From positions 23,303 to 87,302 of the forward strand of contig KV419435.1 in the NCBI GenBank assembly GCA_001630475.1: a stretch of 64,000 nt of DNA, given 5' to 3'. A program made the translations under genes and the position numbers. This document shows, piece after piece, positions 6,342-32,891 of the stretch. This DNA is from Sistotremastrum niveocremeum HHB9708. Taxonomy: Eukaryota > Basidiomycota > Agaricomycetes > Sistotremastrales > Sistotremastraceae. Within the stretch, counting starts at the first letter, position 1; each line of letters starts with the position of its first letter. The notes beneath the pieces were generated by a model. It was given only the letters and a program-made list of their open reading frames with translations. It did no database searches and was not told where the DNA came from.

Positions 6342-8977
6342 TCACTTTTCAGCACGCTTTCCCGGACCAATCTTGCCCAACAGAGACCACAGCGAAGTTC
6401 CCAACGAGACAGGTCGCGACCTTGGCGATCGAAGTCCGGACGAAACTGACTGCGCCAGCAGTGTAGTACTAGCATGCGCCTCCTGGTTCTCCCCCGATTT
6501 TGTTCTTGACGCTTGATCGGATACAGCACGAGCACCACCGCCAGAAGCTTTCCGTGATCCACCTGACACGCGCCTTGAAGGGAGTCTGGCTCCGAGTGAA
6601 GCTGTGAAATCTTTGAATTTATTCGGCCTTGGAGCGGGCGGTACTTCGGGAATAGAGGAGGCTTTGCCTTGTGCTTCTTGCGTGGGAGTGATATTGTTGA
6701 ACGGAAGCTGAGCCATTAGGGTGCGTGGCGTAATTGCTTCGAGGGGTGCTCTGCGAGTATTTGTCTGCCTCGTCGGCGTGTCGTTGTACAGCACTCTGGA
6801 AGAGATCGGATTGCCATCGGCGACGGGACGAGGGGGAGTGATATCCATGGCTCGAGATTCCGGACTGTGGGTTGATGGGTCTAATACGGAGTCAAGCTGC
6901 ATATCATCCGACAAATTCGGAATAGGGCCTGGAGTATGATCGAGCGACGACGACTGCCCTTCCATAGGGTTAAGGACGAGACCACCGAGGCTGTCTGAAG
7001 ATACCGAAGGAGCGCTCATGACACCGTCGTTACTTGTAGACGCCTCCGGACTCGTTTGACGGACCCGTTTGAAGAAGGCCGGAATCGATGAACCAGGGGA
7101 GAGCTTGAATGACCGCTTTGATGCATTTGAGATCGTACTGGTGGGAGTGCCTGATCGCGGTACATTCGACCCCTCAATTACGTAGCCTAGGACCTCGCGA
7201 TCGATCTCGTTTGCGAAGCTCAAGTCTGGTTCGTCGAGCTTGGGCTCAACGTCAAGCTCGGGTCTGACGTCGTCGGAGGAGCTGGAGGACGGAATAGGTG
7301 CAGATGAGGAGCCAATTGATGGCAATGGATGCCAGGAGCGGCGAGTAATTGCTCTAGATGGCAATGGATGTATCGCTCGGCCGGCTCGGGTGGGAGCTTT
7401 TGGCGTCAGCTCGTTGAGACCGGGATCAGGCTTGTTCAGTAGGAGCCCGTCAATGTCTTTATCATGTGCTCTGGGCAAAGAGAGTGCGGGAGTAGGCTGA
7501 TTAGCGCCGCGTGCAGTATTGGTGGCGGCATCGTCGACTGATGGACGAAGAGAAGAAGTTGTTTGCTTCTGTTTGGTACCTGGCTGGGATCCGCTGGCAG
7601 AGGACTCGCCCGGGCCTGCGTCCACCTGATTCTTGCTGCGAGCGATGTCCCCAACTTCACGATGAGCGCATTGGGAAGCATTCAGATGACGCGTAGGGGG
7701 AATACAGAGGACGCTTTTATAGATCGATTTCAAGAGGGTGGGTCCGGCGAGTTGAAAACCGGCAGCTTTGTCGAATAAGGACATGAAAACGAACATGCGA
7801 CTTCGAAGTGATAAGAAGTTTCGACAGGCCGATCTATCTGCTGCCGTGGCCTAATTTTCTATATCAGGTATTCATTCGAGAGGCTGAAAATATGAGACTC
7901 ACCGAAGGGGGTATGTGCCTCATAATTGATTCGTTGCATTCCGTAGAACCGCAGCCGGCGTGCGTCTCCTTCATCGCCCCAAGCGCTTTCACAATCGCCT
8001 GCGGTACCTCTCCGATAATTGCAGGCAGAAGCTGCAGGATTTCGAGCGAAGCGCGATTTATTGGTTCCACCGAGAGGGATAGTCCCTGTTGCTGCAGGGT
8101 CGAAAACAGAGGCAGCAATCCATTGGTGAAAGACTTTGCGGGAGTGGAGGAGAGGCGGCATTCTCTAACGATCTCCAGAATAAGACAACTGCCGAGATCG
8201 TTGTCGACATCTTTTGCCAGCTGGCAGGCCGTGAGGAGCCCGGGTGCTATATGCGCGATAGGTCGAGCGGGGACGTCGACATTCTCCTGGCTCGTGCTCG
8301 AACCGGGCTGAGGAACTGTAGGAGGCGTTCCATCAAGACCTGCCAGATGGTTCACCAAGCGGAACAAGCAGGCCTTGATCGCCTGTTTTGAGGCGACGAA
8401 GTGGACGGGCTCGCGGAGCCGATGGCACGCTAACCAGGCAATTAAACGCCTGATGACCTTCGGAACAATGTCAACAAATTGAACATTGTTCAATGTGAGA
8501 AGGAAGGGTGTGAGGCTTAAGGGTACGATCAATAAACTGACGGTGACGCAGGAAATCATGAACTCACTTGTTTTCCAGAATGGTCACACCTCCTTTTTCA
8601 AATCCAATATGACATAGACACCCGGGCAAGGAACTGAGCTGATCTCGGGCATCAGCGAGATTGGTGATTCCGTTCTCCTGCAGTCTCCGGAGAATCCGAA
8701 GGGTGGATTTTTCAAGCAACTCTTGAAACTTTGCTGTGCGTTGAACATCCACGCGACGAGATTCGAGCTCTTCGACTACCATTCGTGTGAGCGCTGTCAT
8801 GGTAGCATAGGCCTTGTTGGCCTTGGCCTCAACTCCTGCTTCTTCCTCAACCCATTTGAATAGTGCATCAGCATCGTCTAACGATCCGGAGCGAATGCAG
8901 ACTTGATATAGGGAAGGGGGTGGGTCGAGAATATCCACAGGGAGAGTCGCGTTTCGAGTTTGGCCCGTCGAGGCCAT
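6342..8977 (-). CDS. Unrecognised 843-aa helical protein, long member of a local three-gene family
   Basis: Exons 8977-8568, 8515-7903 and 7850-6342 join in frame to 843 aa. Both introns are 52 nt with GTGAGT donors. Residues 1-340 look alpha-helical and contain a conserved stretch, LLTACQLAKDVDNDLGSCIL, that lines up with LLSTCSALNDELLGSCIL in the gene at 27159 and more loosely with the gene at 31435. The C-terminal 500 residues are a low-complexity Ser/Pro/Thr tail without recognisable domain, ending in a short hydrophobic-basic stretch (SLWSLLGKIGPGKRAEK). Intron 1 is phase 2 after 410 coding nt and intron 2 is phase 0, as in the two paralogues. I do not recognise the family. The long tail suggests a regulated scaffold, but that is inference. 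The ATG at 8977 opens the frame and gives the N-terminal alignment. Confidence 0.8.
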
Positions 8978-11900
8978 GAGACTGAGAGAGTCCTGGGTTA
9001 CAAAAGCGAAGCCTGCAGTGATTCAAACCAGAAGAACTTACACTCAGTCGTTTTTTTTTTCGTTGAAAGAGGCAGCCGAGATTAATTCGAAATAGGACAA
9101 CGGATTGAAATATATATAAAGCGAAGTCGACGAGACTTTGGGCGATGAAATGCAGAATTCAGTGAGCAAAGGAGCTTAGACGATTGTCGAGAACATGAAA
9201 GTAAGACGAAAGAAAGAGGAAGGCGCCTATCGTGGCTGGATTTGGACGATTTCCGGTTCAATATTGTTCCCTATTTGTATAGCGCCTAGATTATCATTAG
9301 GTATACTAACGATAAAAGAAGTACCTTCCGTCAGAGACTTGAATTTTCTCTATGATCGTGGGTCAGATTAGCATAAGAAAATAATATAGACGACTGCAAT
9401 ACCGATTTGAGTAAAAGTTCAGATAAAACTTTAGAATTCGAAGAGCGTCTAACGTAACCAAAATACTGAAAATAGGTCCTGCGTGTAAGTCTCCCTGATC
9501 AGAGGTCAGTTGAATACCGAAAACATAGCAAAGAATGAAGCCGAGCCACTAGTCAGGATATTCCAAGGCCATCGACCAGGAGAGAGTTTTTAGCTCTAGT
9601 AGTAAAACTGCGTCAGCAAGTACCATGGTGCAAAATTTCATCGGGACAAATTGATTTCCCTAATTCGGAGCTGGTCTTTCCTATTATGGCTCGAGATGGC
9701 GTGGCAATCGCCTGATCCCTAATATGTCTGGGACTTCATGGATAAAGAATCAAGAATCTCAACTTCTTTCTCTGAGAAGCAGAAGACATGCCAGTCAAAT
9801 TCTAAACTCGAGTTAAGACCGCAAAGCCCGCCATAGCCATTTGGCATGTCCAACGATTTTTACCCAGAATAAACAGTGAGGATTGGAAAGAGATAGTGAT
9901 TGACCTGAGTTCTTTTCTATAGCACAGTTTTATGAATAAATTAAGAAATTTGTCCCACACTTGAGGTGACGTCTTAAATAAGATTCGGCCTCGGATCCGC
10001 AACATAAAGTCGCAGACAGCTGTCAGCTGAACATCATCAGGCTGAAGTACGACAGGGATCATATCAAGACACAGCACGGCGGTCAGTTATCCGCCCGTGT
10101 CCTGTCGATATCTAGAGTGACCAGGGTTTAGGGTAGGGAGGAACAATGGGATGGATATAAAGTTGCAGCTAGTAACAGTATGTACGTCGTGCTCCTAGCA
10201 TATCCGCGGGCGACGAATATAGTCGTGATCGATTTTATGGCCGACCATATCAGATTTGATTCACGCCGTTCACAACAGCTAGACTGAAAGTGCGTTTAGA
10301 TGGAAGTAAAAATGATGAAAACGCGCGTCACGTCGCCGTGACGAGGCGCGTTGTCACAGAATATTTTCACAGAAATTCGCACGTCTGTCGACTTGGCGAA
10401 TGTCATGCGAAATACTCGAGGTTGGGCAGCTCCAAAGGTAGTGTAGAAGTTGCTGAGCCCCGTCACGCGCACATTGCATGCGCAGAATCCAACTGGAGTT
10501 GATCATCCCAGCGCTGTTTGAATTCATGCCGGTTGTCACTGACATGACCTCCGACATTCATTTGCGCTGATGCTTGAGCTGTATCTTGTAACACCAGAAC
10601 CTCGAAAATCATGACGCATCAAGCAGAACAGTACAGAACACTTAGAAGAGGCCAGGGGCGTTGAGGTTGTGGTCACTGATCGATAAAGTCGTTGCCGGGA
10701 CTGAAGTCAGGAAGCCAAAACCAACAGAAAGCGAAAAGCAGATCAAAAACAGTCCGTGGCGGAATGCGCAGATGAGCGGAGAGGTTGGAGTATCGTTATT
10801 CAAGAGACCAGGTCTGTATACCGCGTGTTATATTTGCAGGGAAAGACCCCCCTATCCGTAAAACAAGGAGTCATCGGGATTGACTGATGGGGATGCAGGA
10901 ACGAGATGTATTGCTCAGCAGACACAATCAGGGGTCCGAGATAGCTGGGACGATAGACTTCAAGACAACAGGGAAGCAGGAGCACGAGAAAACAAGAAGT
11001 CGCCACCCTTAAAGTAAAGGTGAGTCGGATATTGAGCCATGGGGGTCTGGGGGCGTTACGAGGTATGCGCAAATGTCTAGATACTAAGACGATGGTAAGA
11101 CGAGCTTGGCATGATTTGCCGTCCTAAACTTCGTAGTGTCTATTTCAAGGTCGATCGTCTTGCTCCACGTCTAGAACACGTGTCAGCTACAAGCATCCGA
11201 CGGACAAAGGAACGGACCAAAGAGCCAATGCATAAGAAAGGGCGATCCCGAGTTCTTCTCTCATTACGTTCGAATGTCCCGGTTCATCATCGCGGATGAT
11301 CCATTGGGGAGACGGCAATGAGTGATGGATCCCGGCGTCGAAGTAACGCGCGTCATGGGCGGCAGATACGAGACATCACACCATTCGATTGTATAACTTC
11401 AGATATGATTTTAGCAGGTGGTACCAGAGACGCCTTCATAACTTACCATGAACCCCCACCATCGTTGCCATCTTGACTTCTTCCTCATATAGGTAGAGTG
11501 GGCTGTAATGGTGAGGTTATCTCACTGGCTGACGAAGCCATGTCAGATGACGCACGGTAAACTGCCTTAAGACGTCACTCATGGGAGGGAATATCCGGGA
11601 AAGATAAAACAAGCGACTCGACTCGCGAAGAATAGTCGAAGATAGAACGTATGCTCAATGAGGTGCACGCTATAAGACAAAGTGTCACATCGTCAGCGAG
11701 GGCTCTGCAGACAACCAGGAAGACTGCGCACCTCAGAAGGTCGATGCCACGGGCTCTTCCATAATACTTCTTGCAATCGAACGAAATTCTTCTACGGTAC
11801 GACAGCTACTCCCAATTTGAGCCATACGTAATCATCTTGTGACGTATGTCGTGTGGAAGCTTCCAGAGTAGCTATCCGAATGAAATTGACGACGAAGTGA

Positions 11901-14793
11901 ATATATAGACCCGGGCGGTTCAGGATGCACTACCGGGCTGCTGCGTTCGGCGTTCGGTCAATGCGAAGGTGGATAGTGTGATGAACTCCTCGGATAGAAC
12001 GGATCTGGCATCTTCGTGAGCGATCATACTACATGGCAACATATGTGAGAACGGGCCGTTGAAGAAAGACAGCGTATGATTGACTGACCTCGAGTCATCC
12101 GCCCACTGTTTCTACTGATAAAACTTCAACACGAGAACAGGATCTCAACCAGATACTTGCAGTATCATGTTTACGCTGAGAGAGAAACTGATCAATACCG
12201 AAAATGTATCGAGCCTACGATTGGACAAAACGGTAAGTTCTTCCGCGCATCGTGATGGATGCCCCCTACTTACTGCTTTTGATGTTGGCTTCGATAGTGA
12301 GAGTGATATAGATGCATTATCCACTAATTTCTCAGCCTTGAAGATAGGCGAAGCAGTGTCCGCAAGCTGAGAAACGTCGCCGACGTTGGTGATGTTGAGG
12401 AGGATATCCGGACTCCGACCTTCCGTTCGTCGTCTTCAACGATATTCGCGACGTTCAGAAGGGTCTACTCACGTCTCTGTCAATATACAATCACCGAGAG
12501 ATAACCTGGTACGCATAACACTCAATTAGCCTCTATTTGGGAGGCATTTGATCTGAACTTGTTTTTTGCGTCAGTGTTATCCGGCTGACATATGAAGATA
12601 CCATCTCATATCGATACCACGGCACCATATTCTTGGTGGATCTTGGGACAGATATACATTGGATCATGAAGGATATGCTATCCTGAGGAACTGCCATCGT
12701 GACTTAATTTTTTATTTTGGCCAATCGTTATCTGATACGAATATCTGTCTCAGTGTCTCTTGCAGCGCTTCGCCGCCCCATCCTACTGGCTTTCCATTCA
12801 AGACCTTGTGTTGATATACCCGAATTAGTGTCCTCAGTTTCCTCTACATATGCCACCCGAATTGGAAGAGAAAAGGACACAGTTCCCCCTGTATGTCATC
12901 CCGACCTTGTAAAAAGTTACGGACTTTGACATTTCACACATCCAGGAGCGGCCGACCGCACTCCGACAAAAAGAAATGCGATGACCGATACTAATCGTGG
13001 AACGCCGACGCGCTTTTGAAGCTCGAGAGAATCTTCGCTCCTCTGGTCACAGATGTCAGATCTCGAAGCGCAGTCCGAACTTGAGCACCAGTTTCACTTT
13101 GATGCTCCAATGATTCATGCAACATAGGCATGCTCTCTGCAGCTGTATGCGAGTTGAAATATCGGGTATGTTGACTCTGCTGTGAAGAGGTTGTTCGACT
13201 GACAAATGTTCATGGAGCCAGTAAATTGCGGCCCTAGTCACATTCGTCAGGTGCCGTAGCCTCTCGGATTACCCATCTCTGTGAGAAACACCGGAAACCG
13301 CACTGGAGTTGATGGTGGCTCACGTCCAATCGCCGCCAAACGCACGCAACTTAGACTTCATGATAGGTGGACTGTCTTGTTCGAGGCCCAATGCCGATCT
13401 CAGTTGCACCTCCTCTCTGAGAGCAGACTGCGCTCCGCCCGAGATCGTATGGACGGGCATTCGCCACTTTCATGACCGTACAGCTACGACGAAAGACTGT
13501 TCCTGAATTGGTAATTGCCGACTTCTCTGTGGCGTAGCATGTGAAGAAGCTTAGTCGTCGCTAAGTGATCAGCCTCCCTAATCTTACCCCTGGCCATGTT
13601 AAAGTTTCGGACCCCGGTGACCAAGTTGAGCTTTTCCCGGATCGTCGATTTCGCTTGACCCATCTCGGAGTAGAGCCATTTATACATATACGGAGGCCGA
13701 CGACGTATCCCAGCCGTTCAGTGAGAATATATCTCCGGCTCGCCCTCGCTCGCAGCTAGGGAGGCTCAAGAAATCAAATACGGATATCCAGTCATTCGAT
13801 GTGTCAATATCAAATAATGCAAGATCAATTCAATTCGTTCTCTGGCCTTTCTGCGCCGTTGAAGTCCTCGACCGACTCCCTGTCATAGGAGGTGAACGAT
13901 GCTATTCAGCACATTCCCCAGACTTAAAGCATTTATTTGTCCGAATAATCTTCTCAAATAATCCGCCCCAAATGGAAGCAGAGCCGAAATAGGCGCCAAT
14001 GGTTTCCCATGACAATCAGGGGCTTGCTAACTCAACGCTTTCCCACGCTCTCTCTCCTGACACGTTTGCTGTTCGTCAATCGTCGACCAGCCGTGATATG
14101 CCTCATTGGCCTAGATGGACGTCGCCAACACAAAGGTGATTGCGAAAGAACCGTGCCCTCATACCAGTACTGATACGTGCCTGGTCAGTTGATGATGCAA
14201 CTCATCTGACTTTGATTTCGACTGCTTGAAGAATCGAACGACTCATTCAGGGGCACATCCATCGATATACCCAGCTTTAGATTCAGGAATTGTCTTTCTT
14301 CCTCATTCAGGAGAGACGAGGGAGAAGATCATTTTACTGCTTGTTTCAACAATGCCGGCTACGCAAGCTTATTTTGAAGTGCATCCGCTATCCTCAGTCA
14401 TGTTCTGCACGCATGGGCGACGCTTCCTCTCATTGAATCGCAGGATAGGTTTAATGAGTTCTCGACTTGCGCATAGCGACGAACGCGAAGCTAGCTTCTT
14501 CAGCTCGTGCACCCGTACGCTCGTGTTTCATCGCATTCCGTCTCTTGCTGACTATGATGTAACACATTATAGATTCTTGCATTTCTCACGCTGACTAAGA
14601 AAAATGCTAGAGTGACATCGACGTCCAGTATAGCCAGCTATGGGCTGCTTTGGGGTATATTCGACAAGGAACTATATTGACAGCACTGGCACATCGTCTG
14701 TATAAAGCCCATCATTGAAGGCAGACATTCTCCATCGACCAGTCTCACCTGACAAGTCATCCTCGACCACTCCTCCTCCAGACCTCTCAAGCA
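8978..14793. other. Gene desert
   Basis: About 5.8 kb without a gene I can support. The longest frames (for example 9802-10077 minus, 13484-13687 minus, 14226-14594 plus) are short and match nothing I know. An acidic piece at 12290-12370 after a plausible donor at 12230 may be a gene remnant, but its first spliced codon would be a stop. No repeat family from elsewhere in the window was noticed here. Confidence 0.5.
14701..14707 (+). promoter_or_regulatory. TATA-like box of the peroxygenase gene
   Basis: TATAAAG lies 87 bp upstream of the peroxygenase start codon, between two non-coding stretches and followed by a pyrimidine-rich segment. Position and sequence fit a core promoter; the transcription start cannot be seen. 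Confidence 0.45.
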
Positions 14794-16950: not shown

Positions 16951-19900
16951 TCAGTCTTGCGTTTGAGCCATTTCCAGACTTGGTGATTGATGAAACACGA
17001 TTTGCGAAGTGGAACCAAGAGCTGGATCTGTTTCGGATGACGAATGAACGGAGGAAGGACGAGTAAGTGTGTCTATTGGGATGTCAGATTCTGGATCAAG
17101 AGATGCAACAGGACCGGCGAAATCAAAATTTGCTGAGCCCGGCGAGGGTGAGACGGCAGTGGATGTCGAGAGACGAGCAATTGGTTGTGAAAGATCCTTG
17201 GGGGGCGGGGTCCGGGTTGTAGAGTGTGATGATGATACTGGATAGATGGGTGTCCATCCAGCAGATGTGATCATGATTGCACCCGTGGGAGAAGAAGAGA
17301 GGCGGCTGAGCTCTGAACGTGCCATCAACAGAATGCAGAGGAAGAAACGAGATCAACTCACCTGCTAACAGATCACGGGCACGGGCACGAAATTCATCAG
17401 TCGTGGGGTGCCGATCGCCGTCCTCGTCGTCGAATGCTGTATCAACGCATTGTTCGAGGAATCGACGGACAGCAAGCAAGTCAGATAATTGTGAGAGGTT
17501 GCAAGAATTGAGATAAGCGAGGAACAAGGGGCTGGTCTTCTTCCAAGTGAAATGGTGCGGATCGCGAGAGAAGTAATCAATGAGTGAAGAGAGATCAACG
17601 TTCATCGGAAGAGGAGAAGCAAGAATGAGAAAGACATCGGAGAGGGAGTAGGGATCAAGTCTGGACTGATCAACGGTTTTCAAAAATTCATTGATCCCGC
17701 GCAGAAGATCGTGTTTGCGACCTTCAACGATAAATTCGACCATAGAATCGTAGAAAACACGTGGGCATTGAACGTAGGATTTTATGAGGTCGAGTCGATC
17801 GACGTGTGAGAGGATCCGCGTCACGTCATCTCTCTTTCCCTCCTGTAACAGGACCCAGCAATGTCTCTCCGCCGAGTGGAAGAGTCTCTGCCGATCGCCC
17901 AGCTTCCCATGGTGGTTATACGAGCACAGAATCCTGGAAACGCATTCCTCAAATGAGAGAAGAGAGAGGGCTCGGAGATCGGCGTTGTCCTTCCAAAAAG
18001 AAGCGGACAAGAACTCCTCCCCAAATTCTAGTGGGTAGCATTGAGATTGGAGGATAGCGCTGACCAGTTCCTTTGTCATGCTTGAACCAAGATCCCTGCC
18101 TTTCCATGCGCCGTAGGGTATAAACTGCTGAGCTCGAGCTTTGAGTGTCTCTCGGACTCGGACTGATGTGTCGGTTGCCATCAGTCGGTTCTCCATCTTC
18201 TCCAGCTGCTCTGCTGTCCCTTCCCCCAGTTCGAACCATTCCACATATGAGAATGAGCTTACCGCCCGTTCCAGCAGCTTTGGATCGCTGGCTTCCGCGA
18301 TCAAGTCCATGAATGCGCCGTGCAGCTTTTCTTTCTCCTCGGTATCAAATTCAACTCTCCACTCCTCAATCAAAAAACACGACAACCACAGAGGGACCGT
18401 TGTCAAGAGTAGCAACGCAACTGTTATCAATGCCCATGGTATCCAACTGATACGTGCCTTGAGCCACCTGTTCAAATTCTCTAGCATGTCCACCCCTGTA
18501 TCAAAGAATTTGCTTAATGACTTAATGATCTTGAGAAGGAGCTTGCTGACAGGTCCGCCAAATGGTGATACTTCGTAGAGCAATGCGTGCATCGTCGCTG
18601 CCACGACTGTGGCAAGAATGCTCAGCGAGAGCACTATACCCAGTCCCCATGTTGCCAGTAATCTCGGTGCGTTTTCTTCGAATGAGACGCCGAGATTCCA
18701 TAGCTGATAGAGCAGTCCAGCTACGAAGAGACCTATTGACCATAGCAAGATGACGTGCAATCCTTCCACGAGGTATTTCAGCCATCGTTTGGCCAGTCTC
18801 TCGCGTTCTAGATGTCGTAGTAGTCGTTCTCTGTACGTGCTTCCTTCGGGCCTGTTGGTGAGTTTGCTCAGCCATTGTCGGCCCAGCACAGAGAGTACTG
18901 CGTCAAGAATCTGAAAGCTGATCAGGAATAATACTCTTTCTCTCATCAAAAACTCCGCACCGATAAGATAAGCGCCAAATAGAATAATACACATATATTC
19001 TGCGCCGATACGTCTGGCACCGGTGGAGGGCTGTTCGAACTTCCAGAATTGCCGCCAGAAGAAGGAGACAGATCTTGGGCGGCCGGGATAAGGAAAGCGG
19101 TGAGAACGGCTGAGAACAGTGCGATCTGTCGTTTATGTGAATACCTTTCTCTCGTTTCTCATACCGCTATGACTTACGAAGACCAACGATACGTCCATTC
19201 TTTTGATCCAATCGTCCACTTCCTCCTTGGTCCTCGTCATCGCCATCTCGAACAATGCCGTGCAAGTGGATTCGTCGTCAATCGCTTTTTGATCGTATGG
19301 TTGATCATCTAGCGCCTGTTAACTGGGCTCAAAAGATGTACTGTGCCGCGTACCTTTCTCAGCGTCTCGTGTTAAGATATCGAATTTCTTGCCATGCGTA
19401 ATCAAGGTCTCCTTAACAGTCTCGACGGTCTTGCTCAATAGCAAGAGGATCTCGTGAATAGAATCTTTCGGAGTCTCCACAGTCGTCTGAAGGCCTGGGT
19501 CTCTGTCTTGTGCGCTTCTGATCTTGGCGTCTACCCGTTCCTCTGAAGGCTTCGCTGCCAAATGGTTTTCAGTACCATCAACAACCTGACTTTCTGGCTT
19601 GATTGTCGAAACGCGAACCACCTCTGTCGACGGCAGCTCATCAAGCAAGAAAGCTGACCGATCATCAGGCCGAGTTACTTCCTCTGGGGCTCTCGGTTTG
19701 GGGAAACCACTATCACAGTTGTCTTCTTGTGTATCTGAGTGGTCATATAAGTCGCTGTGAAATTTGACGTGATATCGTACTGACCGTTCGGAATATTTCG
19801 TGTCGTCGATTTGTTATGTCCTTCTAAAGCCCTCCTCATATCTTTCATGACTTCCATTTGCTCCTCGAGCATTTCCCTCTGCTTCGTCGCTATCATGCTC

Positions 19901-20489: not shown

Positions 20490-20924
20490 TCGGTCCGGCG
20501 ACCGGGGTTCCCAAATTGAGCTCCCTCGGCAACGCACCTGCTACCGCCAGCCGGGACCTGTGCCCCTGGTACCAGCCACTGAGACAAATAAATATTCCTC
20601 TGGTCTCCTGCTCATGAGAGAACCTTTTGAACAAGTCGCAACCCACCCGAGTCCTTTCATCACAATCAATTTTCGAGATCGAACATATCCGGACCCGGAA
20701 CCCATAAGTAACATCGGAGACGCGATTCAGTCGCGGGCTGGGGAAGTGGTAAAAAAGCGCAGGGTGATTGATCCAGGCGACGGGGCTGCAGACCCTTAGT
20801 TTGGATCACACCTCACTCCGGACAGGAGGTGCGTCACACTTCTCTCTCTCGTGGCTGAAAGCTCCCGTTGCCGGGAGAGAAGGGCCAGGTGGTATCCTCT
20901 GGAGTAACCCAACTCTCTCTTTTG
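20490..20924 (+). repeat. Dispersed repeat, copy A (diverged)
   Basis: Shares with copies B-D an ordered set of blocks: a leading TCGG..CGGNGTTCCC segment, TTTCGAGAT, a GGGCTGGGGAAGTGGTAA segment, CTCCGGACAGGAGGTGCGTC, and a terminal block GGCCAGGTGGTATCCTCTGGAG ending in TTTT. It carries many substitutions, and the terminal stem seen in the younger copies is partly lost. Borders are approximate. Confidence 0.75.
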
Positions 20925-23540
20925 ATTCATTTAGGCATTTTTATCATTTTATTCTGTGAGATCGCACTAGGTGTATTGCAGGTGTAATCTCAGCACTACA
21001 GAGAGATAAGTACCACAATCGATCCTATCGCACAACAGACATTGACGCTGAATATCTTTCTGAGTCGTGGACTCGGAACGCATCAATACCAGCCGCAGAT
21101 ATTCTCTATGTCAAGTTCAGCTGGACAACAATGAACGCACGAGAAAACTTGAAACAGCGGAAGCCGTTGAGATGTTCTCAGAAGTTGTGATCTTACTTGC
21201 GACATTTCAGACATCTGTCGATCCGTCTCAGTCGTCAGTTGGTTCGTGTCCTGGTGATACTGTTTTGCAGACGCATGATCTACGCGATGGGCGATGTGAG
21301 CAAGTGCCACTATAGCGCGCAAATGCGCACGGAGCACTAGGTCGCAAACAGAAAATGACGGTCCCCGGGCTCGTAACATCTTCCAGAGTTCTAGACGTGG
21401 GATATTACTGAAAGCGGATCAGTTCAAACTCTCCCGTCGAACATCAAGATCGCGTACCTCATGACTTCAACCTCTTTCGCATGGTTTCTTCGATTGAATT
21501 TTGCCACGGGTCAACGTTCATGTCTCTCAACACCATTCACCATCGTCTGTGAAAACACAGGAGATGGGCAAACGAAAGCGTAATCCAAGGAGATCGATGC
21601 TCGTTGAGTTGAATTCCATGGTTGTGATTTGTGTCCTGAGATGGTCGCAAATATGATCAGTAAATGACATGGATGGCGAGCCGCACTAATGACTTTGAGT
21701 GTCAAAACACATCTGTCCCTTATTCTTAATTGCTCGTTCGAAATCGATATACGCTTAATCACAGCAGTTCAATGTTGGGACACGATCAGCCCCGGGTGAC
21801 TCCTGGAATTCAGGAGCATTCAGTAGTGTTACGAGATTCGAGTGTGTCAGAGGGTGCGTACCGTGAACGAGATGAATGTAATTTCTCGGGCAAAGTATGT
21901 GGCTTCTCGAACTTCCGAGCTTGCGATGCGATCACTAGCACTTGCGACCCCTAAAGGGGAAACTGAGCCACGGTCCATGCAGAAGGTCTTGAATACGGGC
22001 GCAAAAAATGAAGGTTGGGTGTCGCGTGAACCGCAAGACGGCAGAGGCTCTCTCTCACAACTGAGAATTCTGATTTCCACTTGGTGTTAAAAGGTCTAAG
22101 AATGACATTCTCGAGATCTAGAAATTCATTGAGCAACCTAACTTCGCGCGCAGGATACGACTCGGATGCACATACTAGCGACAGCTGCAGTGCGAGAGCT
22201 TGAGCTCGGCGGATTTTCCTGAATGATGCGCAGATGAATTTTTGAGCCCCAAATTTTTGCGAGCAGATCATATAGGGTCGATCGATGGAGCAAACGGAAA
22301 GGCGTTGGTGGGCGTTGCAGACGATGAGCGGAACGCCGGATATCGGATGCTCCATCGGCTCTTATTTTCCTTCCAGTCAAGTCGATAACAAGACGAATTA
22401 TTCATTGCGAGTAGTCAAGGCCTCGATCTCAACTCATTCATTGAATCGAACCCTTTGGTCCGATGCCTCAGTCTCGGTAAACTAGCCTGAAGGCTGTGCA
22501 GGAGGATCAGACACTGACGAAACCACACCTTGTTGTTTAGCCTGAGGCGTAAACGTGAGTCATGCGTCTGCGTGCTATTCAGACATTGACATCGCGCCAG
22601 CTCTTTGTTAGAACCAGCATTTCTCTACCTGCCCTTAGTCTCCATCTATGGATCCTGTCTGCCAGCGAAAGTGGCGCCGATATGTTTCTGGCAATGAAAC
22701 TACCGTACTTCGAGGATATCTGTCATCTCCGTGCATGAATATGTGTCATATCTCTCCCTTAGGCCTTAGCCCATGCTCCTGTCTTGTGTGCGTCCCAGGC
22801 AATTGTGTTACGACATAGTCGATTGACTTTGTGCTTTTCAGGAGGCCAAACCGTCAAATTCTCCACCCCCAGTGATCATATTTCATTCGCTGGATAACAT
22901 CGCTGGACCCATATCGTCGCGTCAATGGTTAAAGGCACTCCCCTCTCCGATCCATCGCGTGAATCCCGGTTGAAATGAGGGTTCGGTCGCCGACAGGGGT
23001 TGGGTGGTGGGATTTTAGAGTGCTCGAAAGTGGACTGATTGTACTGTGGAGCTGTCAATGTGGTACGTCTCTTTCTTCTGAAATGATATCCATTCGTGAA
23101 TATGCTATAGGTTCCACCTCCGAACAGAAATCCAGCATACCACTGTCATCATATCGCCTCACGCGGGCGTACGGATGACGCTTCATCCTGAAAGCCGTCG
23201 GGACCTCGAAGACCTCCCGTTCGCCTGAGTTTACTGCGATCCATCTGCACTTGTCGTTGAAGTCACTCCCTCGCTTCTTTGTCTTCTCGTTTGCGTTTTC
23301 TCGACGTTTCTCTTGGCCGTCTTCGCCATGTCTTGCTTTCCAAGATCGTCCTCACTGGCGATTTTATTCCTCATCGCAATCTCTCCCCTTGTCCTTGGTG
23401 TGCAGCGGCCGTGCAGAGAGACATAAGAAAACAAAGCGAAGAAATATTCGACTGCGGTGCTCTGAACGATAGGAACGCTTCTCTTCTGAAGACAGCGATG
23501 GCTCGGAGAGATGAAAGGGCATCTATAAAGTCCCAGTGTG

Positions 23541-23960
23541 CTTCGGCTATCGGTGTCCATGGACTCTGCGATTCGGATGCATCGGCTTGAGCACGCCGAA
23601 TTCGGACCCCCTTGTGTTCGCACCGAGACGAATCAAGATTCCTCAGATGCACCGCCGCTGCTAAATCCTCTTGAACTCTTTCCAGACCACCCGAGCTCTT
23701 TCACAATCAAATTTCGAGATGGCCCATACCACGGCCCGGACCCCATATGTAACGGAGATGCGATTCACTCGCGAGCTGGGGAAGTGGTAAGAGGCGCAGG
23801 GTGATGGATTCAAATGATAGGTCTGCAGGCCTGGAGTTTGGGACACACCTAACTCCGGACAGGAGGTGCGTCGCACTACTCAGTCGAACGTGCAGGCTCC
23901 CGTTGAGGGAGAGAGATGGGCCAGGTGGTATCCTCTGGAGCTACCCGTCTCTCCCTTTTG
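23541..23960 (+). repeat. Dispersed repeat, copy B
   Basis: Nearly identical to copies C and D over the central 250 bp. The element has a TGGGGAAGTGG word resembling a pol III A box and, about 29 bp on, GGATTCAAATG resembling a weak B box. It ends in a hairpin (GGGAGAGAGATGGG at 23907-23920 against CCCGTCTCTCCC at 23944-23955) followed at once by TTTT. Downstream sequence (ACTTCTGTG..TATGTAGATAAGCAT) is also partly shared with copy C, so the element may run further than marked. Confidence 0.8.
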
Positions 23961-24667
23961 CTCTGGCTTTATGATTATTATATTCCGTTGACTTCTGTGT
24001 TATGTAGATAAGCATAAATAGCTACGAATATACTACTGTGTTCATGAATGATTGCTCAACACAGGGTGAAGCTGAAAATATTATTTTTATTCGTGAGCGC
24101 GTCGACTTGGAGCTGGGCGCTTGGTTCCGCCAGCTCACCTTCGTGACAACGTTCATCTACTTCCACGGCTTTCAATACTGTGTGCTTTTTCTACTAATTA
24201 AATTCTGCTGCTTTCGTGATCTATGAATCGCTGCGATTAATAGCCGCCAAATCATGCCTCGAATGTCGCTCAATTGATCAAGAACCCTCGCGTGGAAATT
24301 TCGGAAACGGTCTCGTCGGGGCATTTCTGAGGATGAGCGAAGACCTATGGCATCGCCCGACTACCCATAACTGTGCTTCATAGCACCAAATCATTGATCG
24401 ATTCGCTGGCAAGCGTGGGGAATATCGCTCTGAGAATGTCTGCTAGGCATGCGATACGTGTAGTGCGTTCTGCTCTCTCGAAAGCCAGCCTCAACTGGCT
24501 ATGGGAACTCCATGATCAATATGGGGATCTCGAGATAGAAGTGAAGAAGCAACAAAGGAGCCTCGATCGAAGACCTGTCCGCCAATCGTTGATGTTATGG
24601 ACACGCCAGTTTGTCGTCTTTCTCATACCACCCACCTTCTCACTCGATTTCCAGGGATACAGCAGTA

Positions 24668-24935: not shown

Positions 24936-25772
24936 TACTGTCAAAGGCGGACCTCGAAACGTCTCAGAGTCACCCTTTCAACACTCTTAAAGCCGCAACG
25001 GGGTTATCCCGCTCCCTTCCCCCTTCGCGCTTTGCATGGCAACCCCAATCCTCCTCTCACGATGTTCATGAACCGAACCAGGAAAATAGTGGAGAATCCC
25101 TCTGCGATGCATCTTTGACATGTTCGTTGAGCGTCGCTGGCTTCCACTGCTGGAAGCAGGTCAATCACACCTCCATATTGTTGTGGCACCTAGTATGTAT
25201 TTCCAATTATCCGATCTGTCGTCGAAAATGCTGACAATCTGCTCGTCAGTCCGCCAATGATTCAACAACGTATTCGATAATTTCTCTCTATGGACAGCCG
25301 CCTTGTATTCAAAAATTCAAAACAACGGCTCATCAACATCGGTGGTCGAAATTGGCGGAGGCTGCGAATTTGGGCGGCCCAGTGGAATTAATGCTGCCAC
25401 GCAACAATACAATCTGGATGCCCTGATTCCTCACACTGCATGATTCCTGACCACTTTTACTACGGCTTACGTTGGGCGAGGTTACCAAGTACCAAGTTTA
25501 TCAGAGCCGTGTTTACTGCTTGCCCTTGAGATGTTCGTACATGGGGTTTGGATCTCTATTCACGCAGCACAACGTCATCAGAATGTTCTTCATCGCTGTG
25601 TTGCAATCGGATCCTCTAATGCCTCGCTCTGGGCAATCAAGCACAAATGGCGAACCGGTATGGAGGTTTATCTCCAATGGACTTTGATTGACTCTACATA
25701 GTGACAAGATGTCTTCATGAGCGTGTTCCTCAATTCCCGTCTCATCCCTTTGCCTTGGAGCCTTGCCTCGAG

Positions 25773-26049
25773 ATGGCGATCAACGGTACACAGACCCCCG
25801 TGCATTGTCAATTTACATTGACTCGAGCCGTACGTCCCACATTCAACTCACACCGTTTCCTTTGTTGATGATCTTTCTGCAGTCTGCAGCTTCGATGTCG
25901 CGATCAAGAAGCTGACGGGAACTGCGCCGAGTGGAACAGTTGCCTTCGCTGTTTCCAAACTGCAAAACGAATGCCCCATGAATGCCACGATTATCGCATA
26001 CCCCGGTCCTCGTCACTTGAGCTTCTGCTGCAATTCGACGGCATTTTGA
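25773..26049 (+). CDS. Possible small cysteine-containing protein (59 aa)
   Basis: Exons 25773-25785 and 25883-26049 would join to a 59-aa product, MAINVCSFDVAIKKLTG... ending FCCNSTAF. The second exon is cleanly open with four Cys and normal codon texture. The first exon is only 13 nt and there is no signal peptide, so this may be the last exon of a larger or decayed gene whose upstream part is not visible. I do not recognise it. Confidence 0.2.
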
Positions 26050-26400
26050 AATTCAATGGTCGGTCTGATCTTGGAGTCAGTTCACCCCGAGTTTCCAACT
26101 GATTATCTCTAAAGACATCCATACCTTCTATGAAGATACAACGTCAACCTTTGGGATCATAGTCGTCGAATGCTCCCTTTTCAGCGACCACGAGCGACCA
26201 CGTCACACTCAAGGCGTTCTAGTCAAGCCATTACTGTCATCTTGCGACTTCTTCGCCGTCTCAATTCTGGGTTGCTAAAGACTCGTTGTGTCTTGCTGTC
26301 TCAAAGCAGGCTTCTCCTGTTCTCTTCTTTCACGCCGACTCGCGCGTCTTCCGGTCGCAGAGCTCGACAGAGTTTGCGTCAAAGCTGCCTAAATTTGAAG

Positions 26401-26846
26401 CCGAAGACGCCGAGCGCATCCGGGAGCCGACTGTCTGCTCGGCTATCGGCGTTCCCAGATTCAGCATCCTCGGCAACGCCTCTGCTACCGGACTGTGCTC
26501 TTGAGCCGGCAGCGAGACGAATCAATATTCCTCTGGTGGACTGCTGCCGCAAATCCTCTTGAAATCTTTCGAGACCACCCGAGCTCTTTCACAATCAAAT
26601 TTCGAGATGCAGCATACCACGGCCCGGACCCCATATGTAATGGAGATGCGATTCACTCGCGAGCTGGGGAAGTGGTAAGAGGCGCAGGGTGGTGGATTCA
26701 AATGATAGGTCTGCAGGCCTGGAGTTTGGGAGACACCTAACTCCGGACAGGAGGTGCGTCGCACTACTCACTCAAGGTGATGGCTCCCGTTGGGGGGAGA
26801 GATGGGCCAGGTGGTATCCTCTGGAGCTACCCGTCTCTCCCTTTTG
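26401..26846 (+). repeat. Dispersed repeat, copy C (most complete)
   Basis: This copy shows the longest shared 5' part (from GCCGAGCGCATCCGG, also seen in copy E). The A-box-like TGGGGAAGTGG is at 26665-26675, differing from the consensus TRGCNNAGYGG at one position, and GGATTCAAATG is at 26694-26704. The 3' end is the hairpin GGGGAGAGATGGG / CCCGTCTCTCCC followed by TTTT. It sits about 310 bp upstream of the gene at 27159. Copies C and D are in opposite orientation on either side of that gene. Confidence 0.85.
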
Positions 26847-26901
26847 ATTTCATTTTCATTTTATTTTTTCTTCACTTCTGTGATCTGTATATAAGCATGT
26901 C

Positions 26902-26908
<7 letters not shown>

Positions 26909-26936
<28 letters not shown>
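26909..26936. repeat. (AT)14 microsatellite
   Basis: Fourteen uninterrupted AT units about 60 bp past the end of repeat copy C. Confidence 0.95.
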
Positions 26937-26939
<3 letters not shown>

Positions 26940-27158
26940 CTCATACTTGCTCAAAAAATCTGGAAGCTGAAGATAGTTTTATTCCTGAGAAGCCATAGTT
27001 CCGCACTCGGTCCTATCTCCCGACCATCCGCGACTGTCGGAATCTGGATTTCGAGTTGGCCTTCAACTGCGACCATATACCCCTACGCACTCTACATCTT
27101 AGGAATCGCCATTCTTTTTCTCGTCTCATCAACTTTCTTTTATTTTTGATCCTTCGAC

Positions 27159-28575
27159 ATGTCAGGCAGAGAGAAAACATCGAGCCTCATTGCCGATGAC
27201 ACGGGTGTTCGTGCTTACGCTGGTCGATTGGCCGTGGCCACCTTGAAAGCTGGCGATTATACGGCTTTCTTTGAATCATGGGAGTCTCTAGAGGAGTCGA
27301 CGGATCCCTCGTTGATCCAAGACGCCGCCTGGCCCGCCATGCAGGTTCTTGAGGAGCTCGTTCGCCTGGGTCAAGTTCCCCCGGAATGGCTCGAGAAGTC
27401 GCACACCGTCCTTTTCAACTTCACGCTTCAGACGATCAATTGCCTGGACGAGTTCGGTAGAGGGAATGGAAAACGCGATGCGGACGTAACGTGCAGAGAT
27501 ATTGCGATGGCGCTATGCTTGCTGGAGGAAAACGGCGTGAAGCTGTTCGAAAGATGGTGCGTCTGGATTGGAATTATGCGGGCTAGCTCTATGACTGATG
27601 CGCTGTATTTCAAAAAGTCTTTTACCCCGGCTTCAGTCAATGAGTTTGATAGGCAAACGTCGCGTCATCCAAAAGGTGGTCCGCGCGATTGCCGAAAATT
27701 GGCTCGCGAACGATTTGACCAGCGACACCCGGGAGAGAATATTGCGTGGAATCACCCTCATCATCTCCAATAACTCTTCCTCCACCACATCATCCTCTTC
27801 TGCTTCACAAAGCAGCCTTCTGAGCTATATTCCCACTACCACCCATCTCCTTTCGACGTGCTCCGCCTTGAACGACGAATTGCTGGGATCCTGCATCCTC
27901 GCCGAAGCTCTTCGCGATCCCGAGATCGATTTGAAGACGGATGCAACTGTCTGGTTGATACCTCTCCAACAATCGCTTGCCCGCGACAAATTCAATTTCG
28001 GATTCAAGCCCTTTAACGAATTTTGGGTAGCGCGGGTCCACCATTTTGCCATGGATCTCCCTCCGGTGCCTCAAGTTCTGAAAGGCTTTGAGTTCTATGG
28101 GGATGGGAGTTCTAAAGCGAATAAGACGGTCATTGGGCAGATAAGAGCTCTTGGGGTGAGTCATATATGCGCTCAGATCTTCTTGTCAGAGACTGACTAC
28201 CATCAGGCATCCAATTCTCAGATCAAAAAGGTGAAGAGTTGGCTATGCCGAAGATCGCAAATCCTCATCCTCGCTCGAGCCCTCGAAGCTTTGCCTTCGC
28301 GAATGGCAGCGCTAGGTCCTCGCTTCGAGGTCTTCCGATGCGAACCCTACGAAGTCGACGTCGCTCCCGTCGAAGCTCCCGCGCCCCCTGAGGCCACGCC
28401 GCCGCCATTAGCATCTTCAAGTTCGTTGCCACCTCCATACTCTCCTCCTCCCACCGAATCGCCCGAAGCATCTACCCCACCTCCCTCTAGCAAGCGAAAG
28501 GAGCTCCACGATGCTTCTGAATCCGTGTCGTTCATGGGATGGCTCTCGAAGAGCGTTCGACAGCGACTCTTCTAA
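27159..28575 (+). CDS. Unrecognised 434-aa helical protein, paralogue of the 31435 and 6342 genes
   Basis: Exons 27159-27556, 27618-28155 and 28207-28575 give 434 aa. The second intron could be read through without a stop, but removing it gives the alignment with the paralogue (ASNSQIKKVKSWLCRRSQIL against LSEEALKEVSRWLLLRSHII). The N-terminal 130 residues are helical, a second helical domain (about 133-330) carries LLSTCSALNDELLGSCIL, and a Pro/Ser-rich linker leads to the C-terminal motif MGWLSKSVRQRLF, a likely short amphipathic basic helix. Exon 1 is 398 nt, exactly as in the gene at 31435, and both introns share phase (2, then 0) with both paralogues. There is no signal peptide or membrane segment. 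Function unknown; I do not recognise the family. Confidence 0.85.
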
Positions 28576-31434
28576 GCAGCTTCGTCTCGTCTTCTGTCTA
28601 TCACACCCATCATTATCATCATCATATCATTTGTATTTTGTACTTTCGTTTTGTACCACAGATGTACCCCAAATCATCGTCATTATTAGTCTTACTATGT
28701 ACGGTTCCCTTATCATCGGTGTACTATAGTGAGCTCCCAAATAATCTTCAAATAATCAATGCATGTTCTTTCGGCTGTCAACAGTGATTCTCCAACGATT
28801 TTGTCGAATTCCTGACCATGGGCTTGGTATTGCCAGCGAATGACTCGTGAAAGAGCGAGGAGAAAATGAAAGCAGAGGCCAACCGATTTCCGACTTCATC
28901 GTCTGCAAGTTACGCCCTCTTGGCCTCCTTTCATCCGTGGTCATTGATCTCTCAGGAGTCAGGCTCAATATATAATACTGGGGCTCGTCTGAAAGCAATT
29001 CATACATGAGAAGAACATTGAGCCAATAGTTTTTTCTCCATCGGGAGAATAAAATCAATGGATTGCACAGATGGTATCTTGGTAGTACTGGTACATGGAT
29101 AAGACTTGCGCAATTACAGTATATACAAGTGATCAGGACACAAGAAAATCAACCCTGAATAACTCAAAAGGGAGAGACGGGTAGCTCCAGAGGATACCAC
29201 CTGGCCCATCTCTCCCCCCAACGGGAGCCTTCACCTTGAATGAGTAGTGCGACGCACCTCCTGTCCGGAGTTAGGTGTGTCCCAAACTCCAGGCCTGCAG
29301 ACCTATCATTTGAATCCACCACCCTGCGCCTCTTACCACTTCCCCAGCTCGCGAGTGAATCGCATCTCCGTTACATATGGGGTCCGGGCCGTGGTATGGG
29401 CCATCTCAAAGTTTGATTGTGAAAGAGCTCGGGTGGTCTGCAAAGAGTTCAAGAGGATTTAGCAGCGGCGGTGCATCTGAGGAATCTTGATTCGTCTCGG
29501 TGCGAACACAAGAGGTACCGATTTCGGCCGACGGAAGCCGACGACGTTGTCGAGACACAGTGCAGAAATCCGTTCGTCGAAAGCCAGCGAAAGTCCTGTC
29601 CTCTTCAAACCATTGATCTCGTGATAGCAGAAGGAAACAACATTGATAAAAAGGTCTTAGTCCCATGGTTGATCGCTTCGCTTTTCTTGAATTTTATTTC
29701 ACGACCGCCGATAAAGGATCGAAGACAGAAAGCAAGAGGGCACGTGAAGACGAGAGCACTCGGAAGCCTTTTGTGAAGCAGGAACGACGATGAGAGCGCC
29801 TCAAATCTTGCCGGATAGACTAAGGAGAATACACAGAATCGGCGGCCCAATCTTAATGACAGTCAAAGCGGATATCAGCGCCATCACTAGCAACACTCCA
29901 GGAGCAAGTAGAGCGTTCACGGACCTGACGGTACAGTAGCGGCCTTTATATTCTGCGACGCAAAGCCACGGTCAACCCTCTAAAACTAATCGTTCTGAAT
30001 TCGTAGTTTGTAGCTGTTCAGAGCGGATTTTGGTCACCTTGTCGCCCGAGGCAATATGATATCGAGAGGGAGAATGGTTTGACTAAAGACTGAGATCTTA
30101 GCATGTGAAACCGAGAAAATGAAGCCGAGGGCACGTACCTTCTCTTCCTCATCGGGCCCTTCGACGCGGATTGTGGGGATTGAAGCTGAACGAGATAAGT
30201 CGCACATTCCTGTCGCTCACATGGATCAAAGTTCTTCAAGTGAAGCATCAAGATTAGTCCGCACCAAGACTGATCCGTCCAAAGAACGGCCAATATACTC
30301 TTCAATCGGGATGTGCATGAAGACATGAAAGAAAGCAGCATCAAGTTGCCCGCATGATACGTCCTGGACTGCCAGGACGAATGAATAACGTAGTAAAGGA
30401 AGTGAGATCGTGTGAGATCGAGAAATAGAGGAGACATACCGGTCATTCTCATCCAATAGGACATCCTCTTCGAAGGTCTCGCCTCATACATCAATTGCTG
30501 GACTTTCTCAACACAAGTATGGAGGTTGGTTTTCTTGCATGATCGACGTCCCTGATGCAGTCGTGGCAAGCGAAGGATTGTATGAATTTTCCCGAGGATT
30601 CGAATGGTCGAAAAAGTACTTCATAGGAGGGTTCTCGAAACGAACTCACTTTAACAGGGAATATTATGCTGAAACCCGAAGTCAGACCAGGCGATAATTG
30701 GAAGCAAGATACACGAATGGCGGGCTCACGAGATGAGAAATCCGACTACTCTAGACATATTTCCTGCCCAACCTCCGTCGATATCACGTCAGAGCGATCC
30801 CACGATGGCGTGAACATCCATTGAGGAATGTGAGATTGTTGTCGATGCTGGCAGACGATTTGGGTCTCAGGCTGGGTCTCTAGCAGGGAGGAAAATTTTG
30901 CTCAACATAATTTTGATCACAGTCCACGATTCAAAGGTTTGAAAGGAGGCCGTAGTAATAGGATCAGACAGTTGAATTCGGTATTCCTGTCGAAAGTAGA
31001 CCGGACGCGAGCGAGCGTAGCCTGAAGTTATGGCGACTTGATGAGAAATGTTGGGATCAGCGGCCCATCACAAAATGAGCCGAGTCATAGGATTGAGATA
31101 GCAGTCACAAGAATTGATTATTGGAAGTCATTGAGGCAGATGAATATGGATAAGAAAACTGAAAGAGGCCGGCGGGTGATGATGGGCTGACGAGACAAGT
31201 CAACGCCTCGTCGGGTTGTCACTGGATGCTCTGATGCTCAGGGGAAATATAAAGTGCATGTCGATTGGGACATGATATCAAGACTACCGACATGTGTACA
31301 TGACTAGTGATAAGGATAACTACAAAACGAAATGAATGGGAATAAAGATAGGATAATAAAAAATGGTTCGTATCGTACTGAACTATACCTGCTATAATGA
31401 AATTCGTCGAAACGGTCGTTATGTAGCGTGGGCC
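28576..31434. other. Spacer between convergent paralogues
   Basis: Holds repeat copy D (29164-29546). At 30018-30569 (-) there is a 183-codon frame, and an overlapping frame reads FFHVFMHIPIEEYIGRSLDGSVLVRTNLDASLEEL with possible splice sites near 30443 and 30378. These pieces look like a small or decayed gene, but I could not build a consistent model. Nothing else is supported. Confidence 0.4.
29164..29546 (-). repeat. Dispersed repeat, copy D (inverted)
   Basis: Reverse-complement copy, almost identical to B and C from the CTCTTTCACAATCAAA block to the terminal hairpin, whose T-run reads AAAA on the plus strand at 29166-29169. Its leading segment departs from copy C beyond about 29546. Confidence 0.85.
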
Positions 31435-32891
31435 TTAGTAAGAGAATCGTCTCCTGACACTCCTGAAAGAGTTGTGAACCCATCCCAGAAGCGTTTCTGG
31501 CTCGTCTTCGCGTTCCTTGCGCTTTTTCTGTGAAAGAGTGATCGAGAGTGATTCTTGTTCGTGAGAGGCTGATGAAGACGGCGACGATGGCGGAGGTGTG
31601 AGAACAGAGGATGAAGGAGCAGTAGAAAGGGAAGGGGAAGAGGAAGAACGATGAGAATCACTGTCGGACTCGCTTTCATCGGAAGAGAGGTATGGGGCGA
31701 AGAGTGAATAATGACTGCCGAGGGCTTCTTGCTGAAGTTGAATGTCTTCGAAGCCTTGAGCAAGGGCGATGATGTGACTCCTGAGCAGTAGCCAACGTGA
31801 CACTTCCTTCAGCGCTTCCTCACTCAGCTAGTACTAGTCAGCGACAGTGTACAGTAGTGCGCATACATGACTCACCTCTTGGTTGGCTCTCGACTGCCGG
31901 AGGATCACCCTCCTCGATCTTTTGCTCCCATTTCCAAAGTCATCAATCCCTTCTAGCCCACGTGGAACAGCTCCCAAATCAGCGCAAAAGTCTTGAATCG
32001 CGTGAACGAAGAAGGTCTCGTATGGCTCAGACTCCAAATCGAACTCGGCATCGCGAAGTCTACGAGACAGCGATACGAGAGATGCGGGGGAGTTGAAGTC
32101 CGTAGGGTTGTTTTGAAAATCTTTGGTGATATAGAAGAGAACAAAAAACGCGAAGTTTCTCCAGTTGTAATGTTCTGAAAGAAGGAGGAGCTGTGTCGCA
32201 AAACCAATATCCCTCATTAAAGGAGGAGGATGTCGACCTCGAGGCTTGGGACAAGAACATTCCTTCGGGCATTGCATGAAAATAGGGTTCAGAGCCTCCA
32301 GGATCGCAGCCCGTAACGTCTTGCGAAGGCGTCGGTCATGGTTTGGGTGCCGAATCCAGTTGATGAGCATAGCCTCCATAATGAGTGGGAATAGAACACG
32401 TTGAGGACGTCGAGGTAATCGTTGGATGTAAGGAACAAGCCTTGAGATATTATCAGATGCAAAGACAGAGCCCAGAACATAGACAACACGCACCCTTCGC
32501 GGAGCAGAGACAACCCATTATCTCCACCGACTCGCAAGTATCTGGACACATCTCTGATAGTCTGTTCTTTCGTTCGACAACCGCTTCTCCCGCCTCCATC
32601 GATAAGTCTTAGAGTTTGAACGTTGTGTGCGTGGATGACGGCCTTCGTTTGCTCGACGTGTTCGGGTGGAATCTTGTCCTCCTCCAAGTGATGCCAGAGT
32701 TCTTCAATCGCCGCCCACTCGCCCTCCTGCCACCAGAGCACATCAGACCCAGGGCTACTCTCGTAGGAGTCCCAGAGGTCAAGGAATCGAGCGTATTCGC
32801 CTCTCCGGACCATTAGGAGCGACTGTTCACGGTGGGTCCTGTTCTCCCCTACGCTGGCGAATCGTTTCGGATGGATGAAAGAACCGGACAT
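31435..32891 (-). CDS. Unrecognised 451-aa helical protein, paralogue of the 27159 gene
   Basis: Exons 32891-32494, 32440-31876 and 31827-31435 give 451 aa. The frame after intron 1 reads LVPYIQRLPRRPQRVLFPLI, matching LLPRLQSMSLIGKRRVIQKV in the 27159 gene, and the region FDLESEPYETFFVHAIQDF matches FNFGFKPFNEFWVARVHHF. Residues 115-325 form the helical core. It contains CPKECSCPKPRGRH, a Cys-rich insert the paralogues lack. A long Ser-rich linker follows, and the protein ends LLGWVHNSFRSVRRRFSY, like the paralogue's GWLSKSVRQRLF. Intron 1 (phase 2 after 398 nt) and intron 2 (phase 0) sit where they do in the 27159 gene. The two genes converge across a spacer of 2.9 kb. No known domain; function not assignable. 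Confidence 0.85.

What the first reader, a model, noticed from the sequence alone, without database searches (positions are those of the whole stretch)
6342..32891. A three-member, intron-conserved gene family of unknown function
The genes at 6342-8977 (-), 27159-28575 (+) and 31435-32891 (-) encode helical proteins that align through a shared core (LLTACQLAKDVDNDLGSCIL / LLSTCSALNDELLGSCIL; FNFGFKPFNEFW / FDLESEPYETFF) and end in a hydrophobic-basic C-terminal motif after a low-complexity linker. Each has two introns, phase 2 then phase 0; exon 1 is 410, 398 and 398 nt. The tails differ greatly in length (about 500 residues in the first) and one member has a Cys-rich insert. I recognise no described domain. 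Conserved intron phases show common descent, while divergent sequence and tails suggest fast evolution, as in conflict or self-recognition genes; that last point is inference.
Basis: partly seen in the sequence, partly recalled or inferred. Interest (0 to 1): 0.72.

Follow-up and report, generated by a model that had tools for sequence, protein, structure and literature searches.

The report
Large undescribed fungal nuclear-protein gene family
Three odd neighbouring fungal genes turn out to belong to a much larger family with no known domain, helical proteins that may work in the nucleus, most of which carry what looks like a metal-binding clasp that the two smaller window genes lack.

Summary
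All three genes splice as described (exon 1 410/398/398 nt; intron phases 2 then 0), with no Pfam domain. B and C are clear paralogues. A is linked only weakly pairwise, but a profile of 14 relatives from elsewhere in the genome recovers A, B and C well above 1,800 shuffles.

The family is not three-member: 23 loci on 11 contigs plus a distant pair; 21 fall into four clades. Three clades (18 of 18 assessed members) carry C-x2/4-C-[NT] at the end of exon 2 and, 65-73 residues on in the 13 measured by script, a second pair: H-x-H, C-x2-C or H-x5-C. The fourth clade (B, C, two relatives) lacks both. I read this as a metal clasp. Tails carry an NLS-like motif in 13 of 15 tested (0.73 expected). 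A's "low-complexity" tail is more conserved than its core (42% v 31%), and one close pair has dN/dS 0.33: no support for conflict-driven selection.

Best reading: nuclear helical scaffold with a motif-bearing tail. The role is inferred. Occurrence in other fungi was untestable here.

The parts
6342..8977 (-). gene A: exons 8977-8568, 8515-7903, 7850-6342; 843 aa; H-x5-C clade
   Evidence: splice model; profile membership
7933..7953 (-). A, putative metal half-site 1 (C-x4-C-N), end of exon 2
7668..7688 (-). A, putative metal half-site 2 (H-x5-C), exon 3
7059..7118 (-). A, bipartite NLS-like motif, conserved in C27a
6741..6779 (-). A, conserved tail motif (TPTRQTNT...)
6573..6620 (-). A, conserved tail motif (KxKDFxAxLGARLPSR)
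6345..6395 (-). A, hydrophobic-basic C-terminus
27159..28575 (+). gene B: exons 27159-27556, 27618-28155, 28207-28575; 434 aa; clade without the ligand motifs
28099..28122 (+). B, position aligned with half-site 1, no cysteines (GDGSSKAN)
28492..28572 (+). B, basic cluster plus hydrophobic-basic C-terminus
31435..32891 (-). gene C: exons 32891-32494, 32440-31876, 31827-31435; 451 aa; clade without the ligand motifs
32251..32271 (-). C, Cys-rich insert CPKECSC (not at the shared half-site)
31912..31935 (-). C, position aligned with half-site 1, no cysteines (GNGSKRSR)
31438..31527 (-). C, basic cluster plus hydrophobic-basic C-terminus
26551..26850 (+). low-copy repeat upstream of B, inverted partner at 29161-29460; context, not part of the gene
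29161..29460 (-). inverted copy of the repeat, 96% complementary, downstream of B

Best explanation
A, B and C belong to an expanded paralogous family of nuclear scaffold or adaptor proteins. A helical-repeat core of about 340-400 residues (exon 1, exon 2, start of exon 3) forms a binding surface. In most members its C-terminal end is held together by a metal, probably zinc, bound by two cysteines at the end of exon 2 and a second pair (H-x-H, C-x2-C or H-x5-C) about 65-73 residues later. A long, probably disordered tail follows, with a bipartite nuclear import signal and short conserved motifs that recruit partners. Clades differ in the second ligand pair. The B/C clade has no clasp and a shorter tail, probably by loss (the root of the tree is not known), which suggests a changed partner or role. 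Shown by computation: family membership, gene structure of the window genes, clades, joint presence or absence of the ligand motifs, tail conservation between A and C27a, purifying selection in one pair. Inferred: metal binding, nuclear location, disorder, scaffold function.
For: Membership with shuffle controls. Helices only in the predictions of B exon 1 and B exons 2-3; only generic helical resemblances. Ligand motifs: 18 of 18 assessed members of three clades carry both halves, 4 of 4 of the fourth lack both. Distance from second Cys to next ligand is 65-73 residues in the 13 members that the script measured correctly, 66 in A. The four ligand states are four clades, three changes in all. 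Bipartite motif in 13 of 15 tails tested v 0.73 expected from shuffles. A v C27a: tail 42% identical (175 of 418) v shuffled mean 26%, maximum 30% of 60; core 31% (125 of 398) v shuffled mean 24%, maximum 34% of 60. dN/dS 0.33.
Against: No Pfam family above its cut-off. The exon 2-3 model is poor (pLDDT 54.8, pTM 0.40) and is of B, which lacks the ligands, so the clasp was never seen. Ligand states are inherited by clade, so they are about three events, and a second motif in a single exon-3 head is often likely by chance (shuffle P 0.03 to 0.45 in the 18 that have one); the strength is the repetition at near-constant spacing. No half-site 1 was recognised in the distant C7 pair. The NLS pattern was written after seeing the sequences; B and C miss it (spacer too long), and in C17a it is likely by chance (P 0.20). 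BLAST bit score is higher for the core than the tail of A v C27a (214 v 127), although identity is lower. [ST]P sites are not consistently enriched.
Confidence: 0.48

Rival explanations
1. Conflict or self-recognition family: diversified by selection to distinguish non-self nuclei or parasites.
For: Many divergent paralogues, local clusters, degenerate copies, and a low-copy repeat concentrated near the A- and B-type members.
Against: dN/dS 0.33 in the one measurable pair; tail of A conserved; no NLR, HET or similar domain listed by Pfam. No isolate data.
Confidence: 0.12
2. Chromatin or transcription adaptor: a narrower form of the best explanation, in which the core binds a chromatin or RNA polymerase complex and the basic C-terminus touches nucleic acid.
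For: NLS-like motif, basic hydrophobic C-termini; chance-level profile echoes of nuclear helical-repeat proteins, CNOT9 (E 0.4) and SCC3 HEAT with C5_836 alone (E 0.11).
Against: The echoes are not significant; no DNA-binding domain found.
Confidence: 0.2
3. Protein of a mobile element, spread by transposition and partly domesticated.
For: A 300-nt low-copy repeat brackets gene B as inverted copies and lies near other A- and B-type members.
Against: Introns at shared positions argue against retro-copying; purifying selection in one pair. Linked transposase or reverse transcriptase genes were not searched for systematically; of four flanking reading frames given to Pfam from contigs 3, 12 and 17 none matched.
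Confidence: 0.05
4. The clasp is not a metal site: cysteines and histidines are structural, redox-active or coincidental.
For: No structure; few independent changes of state; single motifs are not rare by chance.
Against: Both halves occur together or not at all in 22 of 22 assessed members, and the second half swaps among usual zinc ligand types.
Confidence: 0.25

Closest known systems
HEAT/ARM-type helical-repeat scaffolds (kind recalled; chance-level echoes CNOT9, SCC3)
   Same: Helical core by prediction; structural look-alikes are mostly helical repeats and bundles
   Different: No significant natural sequence or fold match; putative metal clasp with swapped ligands; long NLS-bearing tail
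Unannotated conserved genes of mushroom-forming fungi, for example Snowball (PMC10949477, passages read)
   Same: No domain of known function, disordered regions
   Different: Snowball has DUF6533 and is predicted in the plasma membrane; this family has no Pfam domain, is predicted nuclear and has many copies
Young, weakly constrained genes of Agaricomycetes (PMC8893723, passages read)
   Same: Divergent, unannotated
   Different: The age of this family is unknown; the one pair measured is under purifying selection

Membership tests
The family described here (shared core) | Profile match to relatives outside the window above shuffles | tested here: met
   A 29.0, B 37.5, C 38.6 bits; best of 1,800 shuffles 5.1
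The family described here (shared core) | Two introns, phase 2 then 0, at shared positions | tested here: met
   A, B, C. Outside the window: 7 of 13 loci with a model, of 14 tried, with independent profile and free phases; six others chose other phases and C27c gave no model. C17b, C27a, C27b, C3, C12: intron 1 phase free and 2 in all five, intron 2 phase imposed
HEAT/ARM helical-repeat superfamily | Profile match above the family cut-off | tested here: not met
   Pfam (A, B, C; six relatives)
HEAT/ARM helical-repeat superfamily | Fold match standing clear of unrelated helical proteins | tested here: inconclusive
Zinc-binding proteins | Four candidate ligands in conserved spacing | tested here: met
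   18 of 18 in three clades, window gene A among them; not met by B and C
Zinc-binding proteins | Bound metal | not testable with these tools
   needs purified protein
Nuclear proteins with bipartite NLS | Two basic clusters with a spacer, in the tail | tested here: met
   13 of 15 tails tested, of 21 models, v 0.73 expected; pattern post hoc; A meets it, B and C do not
Fungal allorecognition / NLR genes | NB-ARC/NACHT, HET or pore-forming domain | tested here: not met
   none listed by Pfam
Fungal allorecognition / NLR genes | Diversifying selection | tested here: inconclusive
   one paralogue pair, dN/dS 0.33; no isolates

The most novel reading that the evidence does not exclude
A family of fungal nuclear scaffolds in which a zinc clasp exists with three different ligand sets among paralogues of one genome and is absent, probably discarded, in a fourth clade, so that the same fold exists in metal-held and metal-free forms with different tails.
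Probability: 0.3. Interest if true: 0.65.

Novelty: new variant of a known kind. Interest (0 to 1): 0.45.

Why it matters
At least 23 loci of a 34.7 Mb fungal genome belong to a protein family in which Pfam recognises nothing. If the clasp is real, the family is a natural series for asking how a metal site changes ligands and disappears while a fold persists. It corrects the picture of a three-gene curiosity under conflict, and shows that a tail dismissed as low-complexity can be the more conserved half of a protein.

Tried and rejected
Pfam on the window proteins and on cores of six relatives: nothing above cut-off. PDB by sequence: exon-2 profiles gave E 0.57 for an unrelated enzyme and, with 20 rows, designed helical repeats at E 5e-5 and CNOT9 at E 0.4. 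Foldseek on both models: no match at E 0.001 or better. VIA-align on the exon 1 model: generic helical look-alikes. Telomere repeat TTAGGG x3: no match in the assembly, so a subtelomeric origin could not be tested. [ST]P enrichment: not consistent. Weak whole-genome hits judged unrelated or not pursued: C1 (reads like a formin, recalled), C11, C20, C2, C48. Distant pair on C7: 37.7 and 37.0 bits v best shuffle 7.3, but the best single stretch of the second scores only 17.8; counted apart, and no C-x2/4-C-N was recognised there. Papers: the family has no name to search for; keyword searches listed no title that seems to describe it; passages of two papers were read, other titles seen as listings only. 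Other fungal genomes could not be searched.

Rows dropped: the tail test used 15 of 21 protein models, leaving out C27b, C17b, C4, C5_690, C5_804 and C5_617 (tails short, cut or uncertain). The tree used 21 of 23; C5_707 and C27c were left out. In alignment A5 the rows for C27a and C27b were read in a wrong frame and the rows for C12 and C3 stop before the second motif; those motifs come from the spliced models. In one search's second table the pattern missed motif 1 in A, C27a and C12b and took a wrong second motif in C27b (distance 41, not used). The phase-free run used a profile that held earlier phase-imposed models of eight of its loci, so I repeated it with a profile holding none of them: the same seven loci chose 2 then 0.

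Full report
What is there. The window lies in a 34.7 Mb, 111-contig genome. It looks like a mushroom-forming fungus: the window holds a DUF6535 gene and a DUF6699 gene, which I recall as families of that group; the species was not identified. The three genes are open reading frames with the stated exon lengths and phases. For A, intron 1 had a second open acceptor; the one chosen aligns without gaps to B. With these choices all three first introns end in AAG, and exon 2 begins in the same alignment columns as in the relatives that have a model there.

Is the family real and how big? B and C are clear homologues (E 4e-33). A is only marginally similar to B directly (E 4e-4) and not usefully to C. 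Searches of the whole genome with B, A and then relatives gave 23 loci: contig 42 (A, B, C), 17 (two), 27 (three, one with no open exon 2), 3, 12 (two), 47, 84, 6, 4, 29 and 5 (seven within about 220 kb), plus a distant pair on contig 7. The last two searches added none; the tool scores only the best candidates, so the count is a lower bound. A profile from 14 members outside the window recovers A, B and C at E 3e-7 to 4e-10 against 1,800 shuffles whose best was E 6.2. On the other side, the A-group profile alone finds C at noise level and only some of the outside members: A is linked through the family, not directly. Splice choices in the relatives were guided by similarity to the family, but exon 2 is a single open stretch and owes nothing to that.

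Gene structure. With a profile that contained none of the tested loci and free phases, 7 of 13 loci that gave a model (of 14 tried) chose 2 then 0; C12b and five members on contig 5 chose something else (one search gave the same seven with a less independent profile). Either the contig 5 group differs in intron 1 or my models of it are wrong. For C17b, C27a, C27b, C3 and C12, intron 1 phase was free and came out 2 in all five; intron 2 phase was imposed.

Anatomy. B's exon 1 is predicted as six helices at moderate confidence (pLDDT 72.6); B's exons 2-3 as helices at low confidence (54.8). No significant natural fold or domain match was found. Exon 2 ends in C-x2-C-[NT] or C-x4-C-N. Exon 3 opens with a stretch that usually holds a conserved W, then a second pair: H-x-H in 11 members (on contigs 3, 4, 12 (C12b), 29 and seven on 5), C-x2-C in four (C12, C47, C84, C6), H-x5-C in three (A, C27a, C27b). 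B, C, C17a and C17b have neither half. C27c and the C7 pair are not in this count. In the 21-member tree each state is one clade, with 100/100 support for three and 89/88 for H-x-H, and three changes explain all. The root is unknown and the deepest forks are weak (78/55), so loss in the B/C clade is the likelier but not the proven direction. Because states are inherited this is about three events, not 22. One of the three second-motif types turns up in 3 to 45% of shuffles of a single exon-3 head that has one; what is striking is the near-constant place (65-73 residues in 13 measured, 66 in A) and the joint absence.

Tails. They are rich in S, P, T and A and hold a bipartite basic motif in 13 of 15 tested against 0.73 expected. 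The pattern was written after looking; B and C miss it because their spacer is longer, though both end in a basic cluster plus a hydrophobic-basic C-terminus. A's tail matches that of C27a at 42% (175 of 418 aligned residues) and its core at 31% (125 of 398). The same aligner on shuffled sequence gives a mean of 26% and a maximum of 30% for tails, 24% and 34% for cores, 60 shuffles each, so the tail is the more conserved half by identity; by BLAST score the core still leads (214 v 127 bits). The best blocks include the basic motif, TPTRQTNT and KxKDFxAxLGARLPSR.

Selection. C27a v C27b: dN/dS 0.33, bootstrap 0.25 to 0.45; A v C27a is saturated at silent sites (dS about 2), so its 0.32 is only indicative. 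This argues against pervasive positive selection; it averages over sites and cannot exclude a few. C27c, the frame change in C17a (which could be an assembly error) and short tails in C27b and C17b fit birth-and-death turnover.

Surroundings. A 300-nt repeat occurs as inverted copies on both sides of B (26551-26850, 29161-29460). The search found ten places in the genome (a lower bound), eight within about 25 kb of A- or B-type members on contigs 42, 17 and 27. No copy in the window is open throughout in the three frames shown for it. I take it as a non-coding repeat of the same unstable regions; it may have helped local duplication, which is inference.

Mechanism. The most economical reading is a nuclear scaffold: helical surface, metal-held end in most members, and a tail that carries the import signal and partner motifs. 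The conflict reading rests on divergence alone. Whether the family exists in other fungi, which would decide much between the two, could not be tested.

Noticed in passing
window 20496-20935, 23582-24015, 26440-26898, 29154-29541 (inverted): Low-copy repeat, ten places found genome-wide, 8 within about 25 kb of A- or B-type family members.
   Followed up: partly
window 17126-19132 (-): DUF6535 gene, Pfam E 4e-12.
   Followed up: no
window 36351-37541 (-): DUF6699 gene, Pfam E 7e-24.
   Followed up: no
window 34412-34515 and 34753-34856: Direct repeat of 104 nt, 80% identical.
   Followed up: no
L065 and L066 (contig 7, 290-296 kb): Two neighbouring genes, 42% identical to each other, distantly related to the family, whose open frame runs through the usual place of intron 1.
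   Followed up: partly
L025, first part of the locus (contig 12, about 495-498 kb): A long stretch that reads N lies close to family member C12.
   Followed up: no
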